The position numbers were made by a program, and so were the translations under genes. Below, piece by piece: positions 6,465 to 32,243 of a stretch of DNA of 32,243 bases (its first letter is position 1; every line of letters begins with the position of its first letter). The notes under the pieces are model-generated. The model was not told where the DNA came from. It ran no database searches and worked only from the letters and a program-made list of their open reading frames with translations. The stretch spans positions 1 to 32,243 of the forward strand of contig JAICQP010000011.1 in assembly GCA_025937815.1 (NCBI GenBank), given 5' to 3'. The DNA is from Gemmatimonadota bacterium (GTDB lineage: Bacteria; Gemmatimonadota; Gemmatimonadetes; JACCXV01; JAHWKZ01).

Positions 6465-6492
6465 CCCAGGCCGTTGGTTGCTCGTCCCGAGC

Positions 6493-6593
6493 CGTATCGT
6501 CCGATGATCCGGTCTGGCCTGGCACCTTGGCGGCGATCACCAGGTTGCCGTGCGCGTCGCAGGGCCAGTTCCCTCGGCGCAGCTCTCGATACG
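6493..6593 (-). ncRNA. SAM-I (S-box) riboswitch aptamer
   Basis: On the minus strand, P1 is CGTATC (6588-6593) pairing with GATACG (6493-6498). It encloses, in order, the S-box conserved elements: GAGAG after P1; P2 TGCGC/GCGCA around the core GAGGGAACTGGCCC; CGGCAACC; a P3 hairpin CCTGG/CCAAGG; GGTGCCA; a short P4 (CCG/CGG); then GGAC directly before the closing P1 strand. These match the SAM-I consensus in sequence and order. SAM-I riboswitches sense S-adenosylmethionine and normally control methionine, cysteine or SAM synthesis and transport genes. Here the next gene is the unknown zinc-ribbon paralogue 2. The plus-strand nuclease gene starts on the other side, so its promoter may overlap this region. 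Confidence 0.9.
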
Positions 6594-6685
6594 CGTCCCA
6601 ATCTGCGGCGCTCCCGCGTGCCAGTCAAACGATTCGCGCCGCGCGATCGTGTCGGCGGTCGGGACTAGGGTATCTTGAAGGCCTC

Positions 6686-25925: not shown

Positions 25926-26624
25926 CTACAAAGCTGCGTACCAGTCGTAGCCCTTGTCTTCCCAGTACCCCCCCGTCGACTCCGGCACGAACCGCACGCC
26001 CGTCAGGTACTTCACGCTCTTGTACCCGTACTTGAGGTTCGAGTACAGCCGCGCGGGCGCGCCGTGACCGGGGGCCAGCCACGAGCCGTTGAGGCCGATC
26101 GCGATCAGAGTCTGCGGGTGGAGCGCGCTCTCCCTGTCCCAGCTCGACCAGTAGCCGGCATCGAAGGAGCGGAAGTCGACGAATCCGGCCGCGGTGTCGG
26201 CCCCCGCCACGCGCGCGATCTCGGCCAGCCGCACGCCCGTCCACGCGGCCACCGCCGTCCACCCCTCGATGCAGTAGTGGCGGAGGCGAAGTGTCACGCG
26301 CGGCATCGCGGCGAGGTCGGAGAGGGAGAGCGAGAGCGGCCGCCGCACCATGCCCGAGACCTCGAGTCGCCAGACCGCGGGATCGACCCGCGGCATCATC
26401 GGGCTGATGAAGTACTGCGGGAACGAGGGACTCTCGCTCCCGGCCGGCTCGATCCGCACGTGCGGCCCGCCGGGAGGGGCGAGCGCCCGCTGGAGCCAGC
26501 GGTTGGGACGGTCCCAGGCACGTAGGAGCGGCCACAGCGGCCCGCCGTCCCAGCCGCAGCCGGCGGCCGTGAATCCGGCCGCCGTCAGCGCCGCCCGCTT
26601 CAGGAAATCACGCCTGTCTGACAT
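25926..26624 (-). CDS. Tat-exported molybdopterin-binding oxidoreductase (sulfite-oxidase fold)
   Basis: This 232-residue protein starts at ATG 26624 (GGAAGG upstream). The N-terminus RRDFLKRAALTAAGFTAAGC combines a twin-arginine motif with a lipobox-like AAGC (C23). The sulfite-oxidase/YedY-type domain shows the molybdenum-ligating Cys in RHYCIEGW (C118), followed by WTGVRLAEI, then SFDAGYWSSWD and the conserved ending KYLTGVRFV...GYWEDKGYDWY. Family members reduce or oxidise small S- or N-oxides in the periplasm and often work with a membrane cytochrome b. A cytochrome b fragment of the right type is encoded on the same strand at the right edge, but 5 kb away. Substrate unknown. Confidence 0.9.
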   Translation of the reverse strand: MSDRRDFLKRAALTAAGFTAAGCGWDGGPLWPLLRAWDRPNRWLQRALAPPGGPHVRIEPAGSESPSFPQYFISPMMPRVDPAVWRLEVSGMVRRPLSLSLSDLAAMPRVTLRLRHYCIEGWTAVAAWTGVRLAEIARVAGADTAAGFVDFRSFDAGYWSSWDRESALHPQTLIAIGLNGSWLAPGHGAPARLYSNLKYGYKSVKYLTGVRFVPESTGGYWEDKGYDWYAAL

Positions 26625-26662
26625 GTGCCTTCCAATGCGGGATCTCATTCTATTCTGCGAGT

Positions 26663-27217
26663 CTAGGGAGTGGAGGCGTCCTCCGCGTCGGCCATCGGGC
26701 CGTCGCTGTTCCAGATGTCCAGCACGGTCACCCACTGCCCGTCGCGATTCTCGTGGATGGACGTCCACTTGCCAGTGTCGTCGAACGGCTGGCCGTCCAC
26801 GGTGTTCGTGCTCGTGAACGTACCGTAGCCGTACGCGAGGTCGCCCGAGGCGGATACCTCGACGCCGTCGGTCACGATGTCGATCGCGGTGAACGGCGCC
26901 GCCGTCATCATCTCGACGAACCCTGACTCGATCTCCGCGCGACCGGACATCATCGGCGCACCGGGTGCGAGGACCACGGCGTCCTCGGCATAGATGGCTG
27001 CCAGGGCGGCTCCGTCGTTCGTCAGGGCGGTGGTCTCCCACGCATCCCCGAAGTCGTCGAGCGCCTGCCGAACGGCGGCGGGGTCGACCGCGGAGGCCTC
27101 TTCGGTGGATCCCGCTTCCGTTGTGGATCCTGTTTCGGTGGCCGGCTCCTGCTGACAGCCGGCGATCAGTGCGACGGCCACGGCGGCCGCGAACAGCGGC
27201 ATCGCGTGCTTCGGCAT
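26663..27217 (-). CDS. SnoaL/DUF4440-like lipoprotein
   Basis: This is a 184-residue precursor from ATG 27217 (GGAG 8 nt upstream). The signal peptide with lipobox LIAGC is followed by a Thr/Glu-rich linker (TETGSTTEAGSTEEAS). A SnoaL-like cone fold follows, seen in the helix RQALDDFGDAWETTALTNDG, AAIYAEDAVVLAPGAPMMSG and the ending WVTVLDIWNSD. Such domains bind small hydrophobic ligands or act as isomerase-like enzymes; no catalytic residue set is diagnostic here. Surface or periplasmic location is inferred. It is 38 bp upstream of the molybdoprotein gene on the same strand, so the two may be co-transcribed, and divergent to the formate dehydrogenase operon. Confidence 0.82.
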   Translation of the reverse strand: MPKHAMPLFAAAVAVALIAGCQQEPATETGSTTEAGSTEEASAVDPAAVRQALDDFGDAWETTALTNDGAALAAIYAEDAVVLAPGAPMMSGRAEIESGFVEMMTAAPFTAIDIVTDGVEVSASGDLAYGYGTFTSTNTVDGQPFDDTGKWTSIHENRDGQWVTVLDIWNSDGPMADAEDASTP

Positions 27218-27264
27218 GCTCGAGTCTCCAGGTACGGGTGAGGATTCGGGTAAGGGGACGAGAT

Positions 27265-27294
27265 ATTGTATCCGAACTCCGGCTGGCGTAGCAA
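27265..27294 (-). promoter_or_regulatory. candidate sigma70 promoter for the SnoaL-like lipoprotein
   Basis: On the minus strand TTGCTA (27289-27294) and TACAAT (27265-27270) are separated by 18 bp. The -10 ends 48 bp before the ATG at 27217. The match is moderate but sits in a locally AT-richer divergent gap (27218-27355), as expected for a promoter. Confidence 0.45.
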
Positions 27295-27355
27295 ATACCT
27301 TCGTGTTGCTTCCCCGGCGAATGCCGCGGTAGACTGGCGAGGAAAAGGAGGCGCA

Positions 27356-29263
27356 ATGAAGAACCGTCACGCGCGGCTCACGCGACCCCTCGTCCGCGAA
27401 GACGGCCGGCTCCGGCCGGCGTCCTGGGACGAGGCGCTCGAACGGGCCGCCGACGGGTTCCGGCGGGTGACGGCGGAGCATGGGCCGAGCTCCTTCGGGC
27501 TATTCAGCTGCTCGAAGACGACGAACGAGCTCAATTACCTGACCCAGAAGTTCGCTCGCTCCGTCATCGGCTCGAACAACGTCGACAGCTGCAACCGCAC
27601 CTGACACGCTCCCAGCGTCGTCGGTCTGGCGACGGTATTCGGAGCGGGGGGTGGAACCAGCTCGTACCAGGAGATCGAGGAGACGGACGTCATCCTCCTG
27701 TGGGGGTCGAACGCCCGCGAGACGCACCCGATCTTCTTCCATCACCTCCTGAAGGGCGTCCGGAACGGGGCCGAGCTGTTCGTCATCGATCCCCGCCGGA
27801 CGAGCTCCGCGAAGTGGGCCCACCAATGGCTGGCGATCGACGTCGGATCGGACATCGCGCTGGCCAACGCGGTCGCCCGGGAGATCATCCACGCGGGCCT
27901 CGAGAACCGGACATTCATCGAGCGCGCGACGACCGGCTTCGACGAGTACCGCGAGTCGGTGGAGCCGTGGACGCTCGAGCGCGGGGCGGAAGTCACGGGC
28001 GTCGCGCCGGAGGAGATCCGACGGCTCGCCCACGCCTATGCCCGGGCCGGCAGGGCCCAGATCTGCTGGACCCTGGGTATCACCGAGCACCACAACGCCG
28101 CGGACAACGTCTTCGCGCTCATCAACCTGGGACTCCTGACCGGGCATGTCGGCCGCTACGGGTCGGGCCTCTGCCCGCTGCGGGGGCAGAACAACGTCCA
28201 GGGCGGCGGCGACATGGGCGCGATCCCGAACAAGCTGCCCGGCTTCCAGGACGTCGAAGCCGCAGTGGCGAGGGAGAAGTTCGAACGGGCGTGGGGTGTG
28301 AAGATCCCAGCCCGCCGGGGGTGGCACATCAGCCAGATGTTCGAGGCGATGGAGGAGGGGAAGCTGAGGACGCTTTTCGTCGTGGGGGAGAATCCGGCGC
28401 AGTCGGAGGCCGACGCCACCAAGACCCGCCGGATTCTCGAGGGTCTCGAGCACATGGTCGTCCAGGACATCTTCGCCACCGCGACGGCACAGATGGCCGA
28501 CGTCGTCCTTCCGGCGGCGGCCGGCTGGGCCGAGACCGAAGGCACGGTGACGAGCAGCGAGCGGCGGGTCCAGCGCGTGCGGAAGGCGCTCGATCCGCCG
28601 GGCGAAGCCAGAGACGACCTGCTCATCCTCGCCGATCTCGCCCGGCGGCTCGGCCACGAGTGGGGCGCGCCCACCGCGGAAGCGGTGTGGGACGAGCTGC
28701 GGTCGCTCTCGCCGATGCACGCCGGGATGAGCTACTCCCGGCTCGACGAGATGGGCGGGATCCAGTGGCCGTGCCCAGACGAGACGCACCCCGGCACGCT
28801 GTTCCTGCACGGGCGCCTGTGGGAGGAGCCGCGGGAAGGGCCCCCGGCCCCGTTCGTCCCGGTCGAGTACGCGCCGCCGGTCGACGAGCTGACGGACGAG
28901 TATCCGATCCGGCTGACGACCGGGCGCTGTCTGGACTCGTTCAACACCGGCGTCCAGACCGCGCGATACACGGCCCCTATCCGCCGCGGCGGCTGCGTCG
29001 AGCTCTCGCCCGAGGACGCGGAGACCCTCGAGGTCGCCGACGGCCAGCGGGTGCGAGTGACGTCGAGGCGCGGCTCGGTCGAGGGGCCGGTGCGGATCGA
29101 TCCGGGCCTCCGGCCCGGGCTCGCGTTCATGACCCTCCACTTCCCGGACGAGGTCGACACGAACCTGCTGACGATCGACGCCTGGGATCCGAAATCGGGA
29201 ACGGCCGAGTTCAAGGCCAGCGCGGTCCGGATCGAGAAGCTCGAGCCGGCCCTCGCCGGCTGA
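27356..29263 (+). CDS. fdhA: selenocysteine formate dehydrogenase catalytic subunit, lacking N-terminal Fe-S domain
   Basis: This 635-codon gene is read through an in-frame TGA (27602-27604), which I assign to selenocysteine at residue 83. ATG 27356 has AAGGAGG 5 nt upstream. It is the molybdenum/tungsten bis-MGD catalytic part of formate dehydrogenase. The context NVDSCNRT-U-HAPSV aligns with E. coli FdhF around Sec140-His141. LRGQNNVQGGGDMG places Arg276 exactly 193 residues after Sec, the same distance as Sec140 to Arg333 in FdhF. Downstream MGD-binding blocks and the C-terminal beta-barrel domain (LTDEYPIRLTTGR...) are complete. The N-terminal [4Fe-4S] domain with its CxxCxxxC motif is missing; the protein starts at RLTRPLVREDG. 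That domain is encoded at the end of the operon. It oxidises formate to CO2, presumably passing electrons to NAD+ via the downstream subunits. Confidence 0.95.
27605..27645 (+). promoter_or_regulatory. bacterial SECIS element
   Basis: Directly after the TGA, a hairpin forms with lower stem GCTCC (27608-27612)/GGAGC (27641-27645) and upper stem CGTCG (27616-27620)/CGACG (27630-27634). A bulged U and a C-G pair close the apical loop GGUCU (27623-27627). Eighteen nucleotides lie between the UGA and GGUCU, the same as in E. coli fdhF. SelB recognises this loop to insert selenocysteine. Confidence 0.92.
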
Positions 29264-29273
29264 GGGTCGCGCG

Positions 29274-31085
29274 GTGGACCTGAAGCTCATGGCGGCCGCG
29301 CCGGGCGCGGCCGAGCGCGAGGCCGTGGACGCCTTTCTGGCGTCGCTCGCCGAGCCCGCCGGCGAGATGCCGCCCCCCCGCCATCTCCTGCTGCCCGCGC
29401 TCCACGCCCTCGTCGACGCGATCGGCTGGGTCAGCGAGGGCGGGCTCAACCACGTCTGCGAGCGGTTCGGGATCCCGCCTGCCGAGGCCTACGGCGTGGC
29501 CAGCTTCTACGCGCTCTTGCCGACGGAGCCGCGTGCGCCGGTCGTCATCCACGCGTGCGACGACATCGTCTGCCGAATGGCGGGAGCGCACCGGGTCGCG
29601 GCCGTCCTCGAGGAGGTGCTCGGCCCCGCCGGCGGGACCGACGCCGTCACGTGGCTTCCGAGCCCCTGCGTCGGGGCGTGCGACCGGGCGCCGGCCGCGT
29701 TCGTCCAGCGCTCCAACGCGGAGAACGCGACCGTCGACAGCCTCGCGCCGGGACTGCCCGTGGAGCGCCTGCTGGCGGATCTCGCGGGCCGGGAGGGAAC
29801 CGACCTTGCCCTTCCGCTGCGGTCCGGTAGCGTCCGGATCCCGCAGGTCGAAGACGGCGCCCAGGGCCTTCGCCTCCTCCGCCGCATCGGCCGCGTCGAT
29901 CCCGCGAGCCTCGACGACTACCAGGCGGCCGGCGGATACGATGCCCTTCGCCGGGCGATCGACCTGGGCCCGGCCGGCGTCATCCGCGAGGTCACCGACT
30001 CGCGTCTGATGGGCCGCGGCGGCGCGGCCTTTCCCGCGGGCCGCAAGTGGTCCGCCGTGGCCTCCGCGCCTGCCCGACCCCACTTCCTGATCTGCAACGC
30101 CGACGAATCCGAGCCGGGGACGTTCAAGGACCGGGCCCTCATGGAGGAAGACCCGTTCGCGCTCATCGAGGCGATGACGATCGCCGGCTTCGCCACCGGC
30201 TGCGAGAAATCCTATCTCTACGTGCGAGGCGAGTATCCGGTCGCCACCGCCCGCCTCGATCATGCGATCCGCGAATGCAGGCATCAGGGCCTCCTCGGGG
30301 CGAACGTCATGGGAGCCGGCTTCGACTTCGACATCGAAATCCGTCGCGGCGGGGGGGCGTATATCTGCGGCGAGGAGACTGCGCTGTTCAACTCGATCGA
30401 GGGGTTTCGCGGCGAGCCGCGCAACAAGCCGCCGTTCCCGACGGACCGCGGTCTCTTCGGCAAGCCGACCGTAGTCAACAACGTCGAGACGCTGGTCAAT
30501 GTCCTGGACATCGTCCTCGAGGGCGGGCCCGCGTTCGCCACGCTGGGTACCGAGGGGTCGACCGGGACCAAGCTCTTCTGCGTTTCGGGAAGCGTTACGC
30601 GGCCGGGGCTCTACGAGGTCACGTTCGGCACGACGCTTCGCCAGCTCCTCGACCTCGCCGGCGGCGTGACGAGCGGCCGTCGGATGAAGGCGGTGCTCCT
30701 CGGCGGAGCAGCCGGGACCTTCGTCACACCCGAGCGGCTCGACCTTCCGCTGACCTTCGAGGCCACGCGCGAGGCCGGAGCCGCGCTCGGCTCGGGGGTG
30801 GTCGTCGTCTTCGACGACACCGTCGATCTCGCAGACATTCTGCTCAGGATCGCGGCCTTCTTCCGCCACGAGTCGTGCGGCCAGTGCGTTCCCTGTCGGG
30901 TGGGGACGGTCCGGCAGGAAGAAGCGCTCGAGCGACTGGTCGCCGGCGGGAACGAAGCCGCGCTTCTGGAAGAGATCGCCCGCGGCATGGGCGACGCGTC
31001 GATCTGTGGGCTCGGGCACACGGCGGGGCTCGCGGTCCGCTCGGCGCTCGGCCTGGGTCTGATCGGAAACGGAGGCCCCCGGTGA
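29274..31085 (+). CDS. NuoE-NuoF fusion, diaphorase subunit of NAD-dependent formate dehydrogenase
   Basis: This 603-residue fusion starts at GTG 29274 (GAGGG upstream), 10 bp after the catalytic gene. Residues 1-165 are a NuoE-like thioredoxin fold with a [2Fe-2S] site (C95, C100, C132, C136). Residues about 195-600 are NuoF-like: the FMN/NADH-binding GRGGAAFPAGRKW (247-259), GGGAYICGEETAL (359-371) and the [4Fe-4S] set ESCGQCVPC (C535, C538, C541) plus C578. In FdsB-type formate dehydrogenases and HoxF hydrogenases this unit transfers electrons to NAD+. E and F are separate proteins in many FDHs (FdsG, FdsB); here they are one chain, as in HoxF. Its stop overlaps the next gene's GTG. Confidence 0.95.
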   Translation: MDLKLMAAAPGAAEREAVDAFLASLAEPAGEMPPPRHLLLPALHALVDAIGWVSEGGLNHVCERFGIPPAEAYGVASFYALLPTEPRAPVVIHACDDIVCRMAGAHRVAAVLEEVLGPAGGTDAVTWLPSPCVGACDRAPAAFVQRSNAENATVDSLAPGLPVERLLADLAGREGTDLALPLRSGSVRIPQVEDGAQGLRLLRRIGRVDPASLDDYQAAGGYDALRRAIDLGPAGVIREVTDSRLMGRGGAAFPAGRKWSAVASAPARPHFLICNADESEPGTFKDRALMEEDPFALIEAMTIAGFATGCEKSYLYVRGEYPVATARLDHAIRECRHQGLLGANVMGAGFDFDIEIRRGGGAYICGEETALFNSIEGFRGEPRNKPPFPTDRGLFGKPTVVNNVETLVNVLDIVLEGGPAFATLGTEGSTGTKLFCVSGSVTRPGLYEVTFGTTLRQLLDLAGGVTSGRRMKAVLLGGAAGTFVTPERLDLPLTFEATREAGAALGSGVVVVFDDTVDLADILLRIAAFFRHESCGQCVPCRVGTVRQEEALERLVAGGNEAALLEEIARGMGDASICGLGHTAGLAVRSALGLGLIGNGGPR

Positions 31086-32026
31086 GCGCGGCGCTCGAAG
31101 CGAACGGCCGGACCGTGGCTCTAACGATCGACGGGCGGGACGTCGCGGTTCCAGAGGGCGCGACGCTGCTGATGGCATGCCGCGCGGCGGAGATCGCCAC
31201 TCCGACACTCTGCTTCCTCGAGACGCTGGCGCCGGTCAACACGTGTCGGGTATGCGTCGTCGAAGTCGAGGGCTCGCGCGCCCTGGTTCCCGCCTGCTCG
31301 CGACCGGCGGAACCCGGAATGGTCGTGTCCACCGACAGCGAGCGCGTCCGGCACAGCCGGAAGATGGTCCTCGAGTTCCTCGCGTCTTCGGTCGACATGT
31401 CGCTCGCCGGCACTGAGATCCACGGATGGATGGAGACGTACGGAGCGAACCCCGGTCGGTACGGGCCTGTAGCCGAGAGCGTGGCGCAGCCTCCGAAGGT
31501 GCAGGACGATCTCTACGTCCGCGACTATTCGAAGTGCATCCTGTGCTACAAGTGCGTTCAGGCGTGCGGCGTCGAGGCCCAGAACACGTTCGCGATCGCC
31601 GTCGCGGGCCGCGGGTTCGACGCCCGCATCTCGACCGAGTTCGACGTCACGCTGCCCGACTCGGCATGCGTGTATTGCGGAAATTGCATCGGCGTGTGCC
31701 CCACCGGCGCCCTGATCTTCAAGACCGAGTTCGACATGCGCCGGCAGGGGACATGGGACGAGTCACGCCAGTCCGTGACCCGTACTGTGTGCGCCTACTG
31801 CGGGGTGGGCTGCAACCTCGACCTGCACGTCCAGGACAACCGTATCGTCAAGGTAACCTCGCCCCTCGACCACGACGTCACGAGCGGCCACCTGTGCATC
31901 AAGGGACGCTTCGGCTGGCAGCACGTGCAGGCGGGCCTCGACGATCCGGCCGGTCCGGCGCCGGCTCCCGATACGGCCCCAGGATCATCGAGCGGGTCGC
32001 CTCCCGATCGACGACCAGCGTCATGA
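31082..32026 (+). CDS. Fe-S subunit: detached N-terminal region of formate dehydrogenase alpha (HoxU/NuoG-like)
   Basis: This 314-residue protein starts with GTG 31082 in a GTGA overlap. Domains: a plant-type [2Fe-2S] ferredoxin (C44, C55, C58, C72); two [4Fe-4S] motifs CxxCxxCxxxC at 152-162 and 196-206; then the formate-dehydrogenase [4Fe-4S] domain (C237, C240, C244, C272) with K274 in LCIKGRFG, equivalent to E. coli FdhF Lys44. The His/Cys cluster present between the first two domains in NuoG is absent. Homology to FDH alpha stops right after GRFGWQHVQ and resumes at the N-terminus of the protein encoded at 27356. The tail (285-314) is Pro/Ser-rich. The two polypeptides must assemble to build one alpha subunit. 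The 3' end overlaps the convergent cytochrome b gene by 128 bp. Confidence 0.93.
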   Translation: MSAALEANGRTVALTIDGRDVAVPEGATLLMACRAAEIATPTLCFLETLAPVNTCRVCVVEVEGSRALVPACSRPAEPGMVVSTDSERVRHSRKMVLEFLASSVDMSLAGTEIHGWMETYGANPGRYGPVAESVAQPPKVQDDLYVRDYSKCILCYKCVQACGVEAQNTFAIAVAGRGFDARISTEFDVTLPDSACVYCGNCIGVCPTGALIFKTEFDMRRQGTWDESRQSVTRTVCAYCGVGCNLDLHVQDNRIVKVTSPLDHDVTSGHLCIKGRFGWQHVQAGLDDPAGPAPAPDTAPGSSSGSPPDRRPAS

Positions 32027-32243
32027 ACAGGTGCCCCAGCGTGAAGCCCACGAACGCCCAGACGACCAGGAAGTGCCAGAAGCGCGCCCACACGTAGCCG
32101 CCCATCCAGCCGGCCAGAGGTAGCGAGACCGGCTTCCATATCGCGAAGCCGGTCGCCACCGCGAGGACCCCCAGTGCGAACGTCCCCGTGTAGGCCAGCT
32201 TCTGAAGACCGTTGTAGACCTCGTACTCCGGCTTCTCCCGACG
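31899..32243 (-). CDS. cytochrome b/b561-like membrane subunit, C-terminal part (runs off the right edge)
   Basis: About 115 codons lie in the window. Reading from the edge, ...EKPEYEVYNGLQKLAYTGTFALGVLAVATGF is a TM helix, then IWKPV...GGYVWARFWHFLVVWAFVGFTLGHLFMTLVV is a second TM helix with His residues placed as haem ligands. A Pro/Arg-rich cytoplasmic tail ends in SRSVP. This is the C-terminal half of a cytochrome b561/PhsC/FDH-gamma-type di-haem subunit that passes electrons to or from a periplasmic or membrane-bound molybdoenzyme. The start lies outside the window. It may serve the Tat-exported molybdoprotein encoded at 25926-26624 (same strand). The formate dehydrogenase beside it looks soluble and NAD-linked. 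Confidence 0.85.
   Translation of the reverse strand, partial: RREKPEYEVYNGLQKLAYTGTFALGVLAVATGFAIWKPVSLPLAGWMGGYVWARFWHFLVVWAFVGFTLGHLFMTLVVDREATRSMILGPYREPAPDRPDRRGPPARAASRSVP

What the first reader, a model, noticed from the sequence alone, without database searches (positions are those of the whole stretch)
27356..32026. Formate dehydrogenase alpha subunit split in two and permuted in gene order
The catalytic gene (27356-29263) begins exactly where the bis-MGD domain begins. The missing N-terminal part ([2Fe-2S], two [4Fe-4S] and the FDH [4Fe-4S] domain with the catalytic-site Lys) is the last gene of the operon (31082-32026), after the NuoE-NuoF fusion. Homology breaks between GRFGWQHVQ and RLTRPLVREDG, adjacent positions in normal alpha subunits. 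Each part has its own start signal. The electron path from the Mo site to the proximal cluster must cross a protein interface that is intramolecular in known enzymes.
Basis: partly seen in the sequence, partly recalled or inferred. Interest (0 to 1): 0.8.

Follow-up and report, generated by a model that had tools for sequence, protein, structure and literature searches.

The report
Formate dehydrogenase split into two genes
In bacteria from at least ten phyla, the main subunit of a selenium-containing formate-oxidising enzyme is made as two separate proteins from rearranged genes, so electrons leaving the metal centre must hop between two proteins at a step that lies inside a single chain in the studied relatives.

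Summary
The catalytic gene (27356-29263) starts where the bis-MGD domain starts, 5-6 residues before the conserved RLTRPLV. The missing N-terminal Fe-S part is the third gene (31082-32026), after a NuoE-NuoF fusion. An in-frame TGA (27602-27604) is a selenocysteine codon with a SECIS hairpin; selA, selB and tRNA-Sec are in the genome. The same Cat > NuoEF > N order occurs in 79 of 93 loci examined. Twelve of the others are consistent with contig-end truncation, one is cut inside NuoEF, and one carries Cat elsewhere. No split-clade member is fused. Loci span at least ten phyla. Cat and N each form one clade (SH-aLRT 100 and 99), so one old split followed by wide spread fits best. Fused relatives have NuoEF > N-Cat, so the split order is a cyclic rotation of that operon. 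All Fe-S ligands and the relay lysine are invariant in the aligned N proteins, and Sec/Cys, His and Arg in the aligned Cat proteins. Most likely it is a three-chain NAD-dependent Sec-FDH with the cofactor set of Methylorubrum FDH1. The cross-interface electron step is inferred, not shown. I found no description in the open-access papers searched.

The parts
27356..29263 (+). Cat: bis-MGD catalytic subunit of formate dehydrogenase without the N-terminal Fe-S domains; Sec83, His84, Arg276
   Evidence: TIGR01591 columns 49-672; Pfam Molybdopterin and Molydop_binding; model pLDDT 88, TM 0.93 to E. coli FdhF 1fdi
27602..27604 (+). in-frame TGA, selenocysteine codon
   Evidence: TGA in 75 of 76 loci where the site is readable, TGT in L145; selA, selB and tRNA-Sec in the genome
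27602..27646 (+). SECIS-type hairpin, apical loop GGUCU at +22 to +26 from the TGA
   Evidence: loop invariant in 70 of 70 distinct sequences, stem 97-100% paired over six pairs; same offset as in E. coli fdhF
29274..31085 (+). NuoE-NuoF fusion: [2Fe-2S] thioredoxin-like domain, FMN/NAD domain, SLBB, NADH_4Fe-4S
   Evidence: Pfam/NCBIfam
31082..32026 (+). N: detached N-terminal part, [2Fe-2S] (C44, C55, C58, C72), two [4Fe-4S] (C152-C162, C196-C206), FDH [4Fe-4S] (C237, C240, C244, C272) and K274
   Evidence: Pfam Fer2_4, Fer4, Molybdop_Fe4S4; ligands and K274 invariant in 27 aligned sequences
31082..31085 (+). GTGA overlap of N start with NuoEF stop (probable translational coupling)
   Evidence: sequence; median gaps in relatives 5 and 4 bases

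Best explanation
This is a cytoplasmic NAD-dependent Mo/W formate dehydrogenase whose alpha subunit is made as two polypeptides. Cat binds the metal-bis-MGD with Sec83 and oxidises formate (or reduces CO2). N docks on Cat where its own N-terminal domain used to be, placing its FDH [4Fe-4S] cluster and Lys274 next to the proximal pterin. Electrons pass Cat > N (FDH [4Fe-4S], two [4Fe-4S], [2Fe-2S]) > NuoEF ([4Fe-4S], FMN) > NAD. The layout arose once, by fission at the domain border plus rotation of a NuoEF > N-Cat operon (tandem duplication with loss of the outer parts would do it), then spread across phyla, with horizontal transfer likely. Shown: gene anatomy, conservation, single-clade pattern, Sec signals. 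Inferred: the complex, the electron path, the direction of reaction, the route of rotation.
For: Order Cat > NuoEF > N in 79 of 93 loci, none fused. Phyla: Actinomycetota 25, Acidobacteriota 24, Chloroflexota 11 and seven others among the 80 named loci. Split rows are one side of one branch in the Cat tree (SH-aLRT 100) and in the N tree (99). Fused relatives carry NuoEF > N-Cat with NuoE and NuoF also fused (L068). Cluster ligands and K274 are invariant in N; Sec/Cys83, His84 and Arg276 in Cat. Cat folds alone at pLDDT 88 and matches FdhF and MeFDH1 at TM 0.93-0.94. SECIS and Sec machinery. Neighbours FdhD in 11 loci, formate-THF ligase in 10, FolD in 5. In one genome Cat lies beside a selD-like frame on another contig from NuoEF-N, which suggests the pieces work in trans. 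MeFDH1 has the same cofactor set in two chains (PMC13397495).
Against: No structure of the complex and no activity data. The isolated N model is poor (pLDDT 62). FdhD, the usual FDH maturation factor, was found neither in this genome nor in the second genome of the genus, though it is in all six other relatives tested. Both are incomplete drafts. The Cat-N distance correlation of 0.77 is also expected from plain co-inheritance.
Confidence: 0.85

Rival explanations
1. Cat works without the N piece as an FDH lacking its own Fe-S cluster, and N only serves the NuoEF diaphorase, its FDH [4Fe-4S] domain being a remnant.
For: Some MopB enzymes do lack the N-terminal cluster (PMC10100899). In one genome Cat is unlinked from NuoEF-N.
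Against: All four Cys of the FDH cluster and K274 are invariant in the aligned N proteins, which a remnant would not keep. The three genes stay adjacent in 79 loci.
Confidence: 0.07
2. Misassembly or binning artefact in a draft genome.
For: The window is a whole contig of a draft MAG in 264 contigs.
Against: Same order in a second genome of the genus (L051), in long contigs, and in loci of many phyla from independent projects, including two records titled chromosome (L125, L135).
Confidence: 0.01
3. The two parts are joined after translation (split-intein-like trans-splicing) or by recoding, so the mature enzyme is a normal fused alpha subunit.
For: None beyond the exact complementarity of the two parts.
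Against: N tails beyond the domain are mostly 0-20 residues and Cat heads only 5-10 residues, with no room for an intein. NuoEF lies between them, so frameshifting cannot join them.
Confidence: 0.02
4. Cat and N did not come from fission of one fused gene: an FdhF-like catalytic gene lost its cluster domain while a HoxU/NuoG-like protein gained one. This concerns origin only and is compatible with the mechanism given above.
For: By sequence Cat is nearest to FdhF of HDCR and archaeal FdhA, N to FdsA.
Against: Both parts end at the same adjacent position, and Cat and N show matching clade structure against the fused set. The trees were not rooted and contain few distant fused forms.
Confidence: 0.2

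Closest known systems
Methylorubrum extorquens FDH1 (Fdh1A/Fdh1B, PDB 7VW6, 8J83)
   Same: NAD-linked; same set of one [2Fe-2S], three [4Fe-4S] and metal-bis-MGD in the alpha part, and an NAD-reducing beta subunit with FMN, [4Fe-4S] and [2Fe-2S] in one chain; Cat TM 0.94
   Different: alpha is one chain; Cys instead of Sec; about 36% identity in Cat
FdsABG(D) of Rhodobacter capsulatus (PDB 6TG9)
   Same: N and Cat align to consecutive parts of FdsA
   Different: one alpha chain, four [4Fe-4S] (the split N lacks one), NuoE-like and NuoF-like subunits separate, Cys
FdhF of E. coli FHL and of HDCR
   Same: best sequence and fold match of Cat; same Sec-His and SECIS position as E. coli fdhF
   Different: FdhF carries its own [4Fe-4S] domain in the same chain; no NAD module
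Formylmethanofuran dehydrogenase FwdB/FwdD
   Same: a MopB enzyme with one domain on a separate subunit (own knowledge, not tested)
   Different: there the C-terminal dinucleotide-binding domain is detached, not the Fe-S domain
HoxU of bidirectional hydrogenase
   Same: a stand-alone NuoG-like Fe-S subunit next to a NuoE/F module; N matches the HoxU model over residues 12-215
   Different: N also carries the molybdoenzyme [4Fe-4S] domain with its lysine

Membership tests
Cytoplasmic NAD-dependent Mo/W formate dehydrogenase | MopB catalytic domain with Sec/Cys-His and Arg at the metal | tested here: met
   Sec83/Cys, His84, Arg276 invariant; TIGR01591 665.7 bits against a cut-off of 666.25, missing only the first 48 columns
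Cytoplasmic NAD-dependent Mo/W formate dehydrogenase | proximal [4Fe-4S] with four Cys and a relay Lys | tested here: met
   C237, C240, C244, C272 and K274 invariant, but on a separate protein
Cytoplasmic NAD-dependent Mo/W formate dehydrogenase | NAD/FMN module of NuoE/NuoF type | tested here: met
Cytoplasmic NAD-dependent Mo/W formate dehydrogenase | cluster domain and metal domain in one alpha polypeptide | tested here: not met
   separate genes in all loci of the clade where both are present
Cytoplasmic NAD-dependent Mo/W formate dehydrogenase | formate:NAD oxidoreductase activity | not testable with these tools
   needs purified enzyme
Bacterial selenoproteins | TGA with downstream SECIS and selA, selB, selC in the genome | tested here: met
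Nqo3/NuoG of complex I | part of the nuo operon, degenerate Mo domain | tested here: not met
   the genome has a separate NuoG-type frame on contig 22; Cat keeps the active-site residues

The most novel reading that the evidence does not exclude
A widespread, undescribed three-chain class of selenocysteine formate dehydrogenase in which the proximal [4Fe-4S] cluster and its relay lysine sit on a separate, possibly reversibly docking subunit, so the Mo-to-cluster electron step is made across a protein interface and the catalytic chain could be uncoupled from its wire or exchanged.
Probability: 0.6. Interest if true: 0.7.

Novelty: new variant of a known kind. Interest (0 to 1): 0.58.

Why it matters
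Metal-dependent formate dehydrogenases are studied for CO2 reduction, and in the NAD-linked enzymes reviewed the proximal cluster is on the catalytic chain. A natural enzyme with the cluster on a separate subunit gives a direct test of whether metal-site chemistry and electron wiring can be separated, a smaller catalytic chain to engineer, and a worked case of gene fission by operon rotation. Cat and N are also likely to be overlooked or annotated as unrelated fragments in genomes: the TGA truncates Cat, and the whole-alpha TIGR01591 model falls just under its cut-off.

Tried and rejected
I first read L139 as a natural Cat-NuoEF fusion because the match ran through, but translation shows a stop between them, so it is not a fusion. 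L089 has about 2.4 kb between Cat and NuoEF, with ambiguous bases in it, and may be a scaffolding join. L083 appeared to lack Cat; the gene is on another contig beside a selD-like frame. A heterodimer model was not attempted: the structure tool takes one natural chain, and a concatenated N+Cat would be a changed sequence. The isolated N model was too weak to say anything about docking. Literature searches found no description of a split or permuted FDH. Plasmid records hold only distant relatives of N, at 36-37% identity in the listed rows.

Full report
CHECK OF THE OBSERVATION. The catalytic gene reads through an in-frame TGA at 27602-27604, which the finding text does not mention. By profile, Cat covers columns 49-672 of the FDH alpha model TIGR01591 and the last gene covers columns 1-50. 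On one fused solved chain (6tg9_A) they cover 307-931 and 21-302, so nothing of note is missing or duplicated. In the window, N starts with a GTG that overlaps the NuoEF stop codon. The only other Molybdop_Fe4S4 domains of the genome lie elsewhere: one in the NuoG locus and two in other large oxidoreductase frames.

RELATIVES. A search of 149 related genomes gave a clear set with over 60% identity to Cat, one TGA at the active site (the closest genome has two, the second being the stop), and a start at the same place. These names come from record titles, and most are MAGs. Of 93 loci, 79 have all three genes in the order Cat > NuoEF > N. Of the other fourteen, twelve are consistent with truncation at a contig end, judged from contig coordinates rather than checked one by one. 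One (L057) has NuoEF cut short and lacks N in the stretch. One (L083) has NuoEF-N without Cat; its genome carries Cat on another contig beside a selD-like frame, and only one NuoEF. If the binning is right, the pieces work in trans there. In 27 of 72 loci an in-frame stop lies within 20 codons upstream of the conserved RLT, which rules out an attached Fe-S domain. Median gaps between genes are 5 and 4 bases. In an even draw of 395 genomes of the phylum, 20 passed a strict threshold for N; this is a lower bound, since a variable insert splits many matches and G053, a known carrier, is missed.

EVOLUTION. With 42 split and 34 other Cat sequences the split set is one side of one branch (SH-aLRT 100), and likewise N (46 split, 25 fused; 99). 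Both trees are quick searches, unrooted, with long branches, so one origin is favoured but not proved. A fused relative (L068) has the order NuoEF > N-Cat, already with NuoE and NuoF fused. Cat > NuoEF > N is a rotation of this order. Tandem duplication followed by loss of the outer parts would produce it in few steps; this is inference.

SELENOCYSTEINE. The TGA is present in 75 of 76 loci where the position can be read; L145 has TGT. Downstream, a hairpin with loop GGUCU at +22 to +26 is invariant in 70 distinct sequences. Six stem pairs are 97-100% standard, with changes that keep pairing (U-A/U-G, U-G/C-G, and C-G to G-C in two sequences). Sliding the 3' side by one or two bases drops pairing to 18-33%; sliding by three bases leaves 69-81%, a codon-period effect. 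The Cys variant has GGC instead of the invariant GGT. E. coli fdhF has the same loop at the same offset. selA, selB (its match ends near a contig edge) and tRNA-Sec are in the genome.

MECHANISM. Invariant in the 27 aligned N sequences are the Cys of one [2Fe-2S], two [4Fe-4S] and the FDH [4Fe-4S], plus K274. The NuoG-type His/Cys cluster is absent, giving the same cofactor set that a review describes for Methylorubrum FDH1 (PMC13397495). Cat is predicted to fold well alone (pLDDT 88) and matches fused FDHs at TM 0.93-0.94. FdhD, formate-THF ligase and FolD are recurrent neighbours, which suggests a role in oxidising formate from folate-bound C1 units, or the reverse. The most economical reading is a three-chain NAD-linked FDH in which the first electron step from the metal site crosses a protein interface. 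The complex itself, its activity and the direction are not shown.

NOVELTY. I found no paper describing a split or permuted FDH alpha subunit, but only open-licence papers were searched. The chemistry and the modules are known; the gene layout and the separate cluster subunit are the new part.

Noticed in passing
genome G000 and G001 (same genus): FdhD, normally needed for FDH maturation, was found in neither genome, while all six other relatives tested have it, mostly close to the operon. Gap in the drafts or a real loss.
   Followed up: partly
L145:2858-4750: A member with TGT (Cys) in place of the Sec codon and without the strict SECIS loop; a convenient selenium-free form for expression.
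   Followed up: partly
L172 and L083: Cat sits beside a selD-like frame on a 3.4 kb contig, while NuoEF-N is on another contig of the same MAG.
   Followed up: partly
window 31899-32243, strand -: A minus-strand frame, cytochrome b-like by eye, runs off the contig end and overlaps the low-complexity tail of N.
   Followed up: no
window 25926-27356, strand -: A Tat-signal, sulfite-oxidase-like molybdoenzyme frame lies just upstream on the other strand (reading, not tested).
   Followed up: no
window 6491-6595, strand -: SAM riboswitch, 47.2 bits against a gathering score of 44.4.
   Followed up: no
L089:1827-4115: About 2.4 kb, with a sugar-dehydrogenase-like frame and two N bases, lies between Cat and NuoEF; insertion or scaffolding join.
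   Followed up: partly
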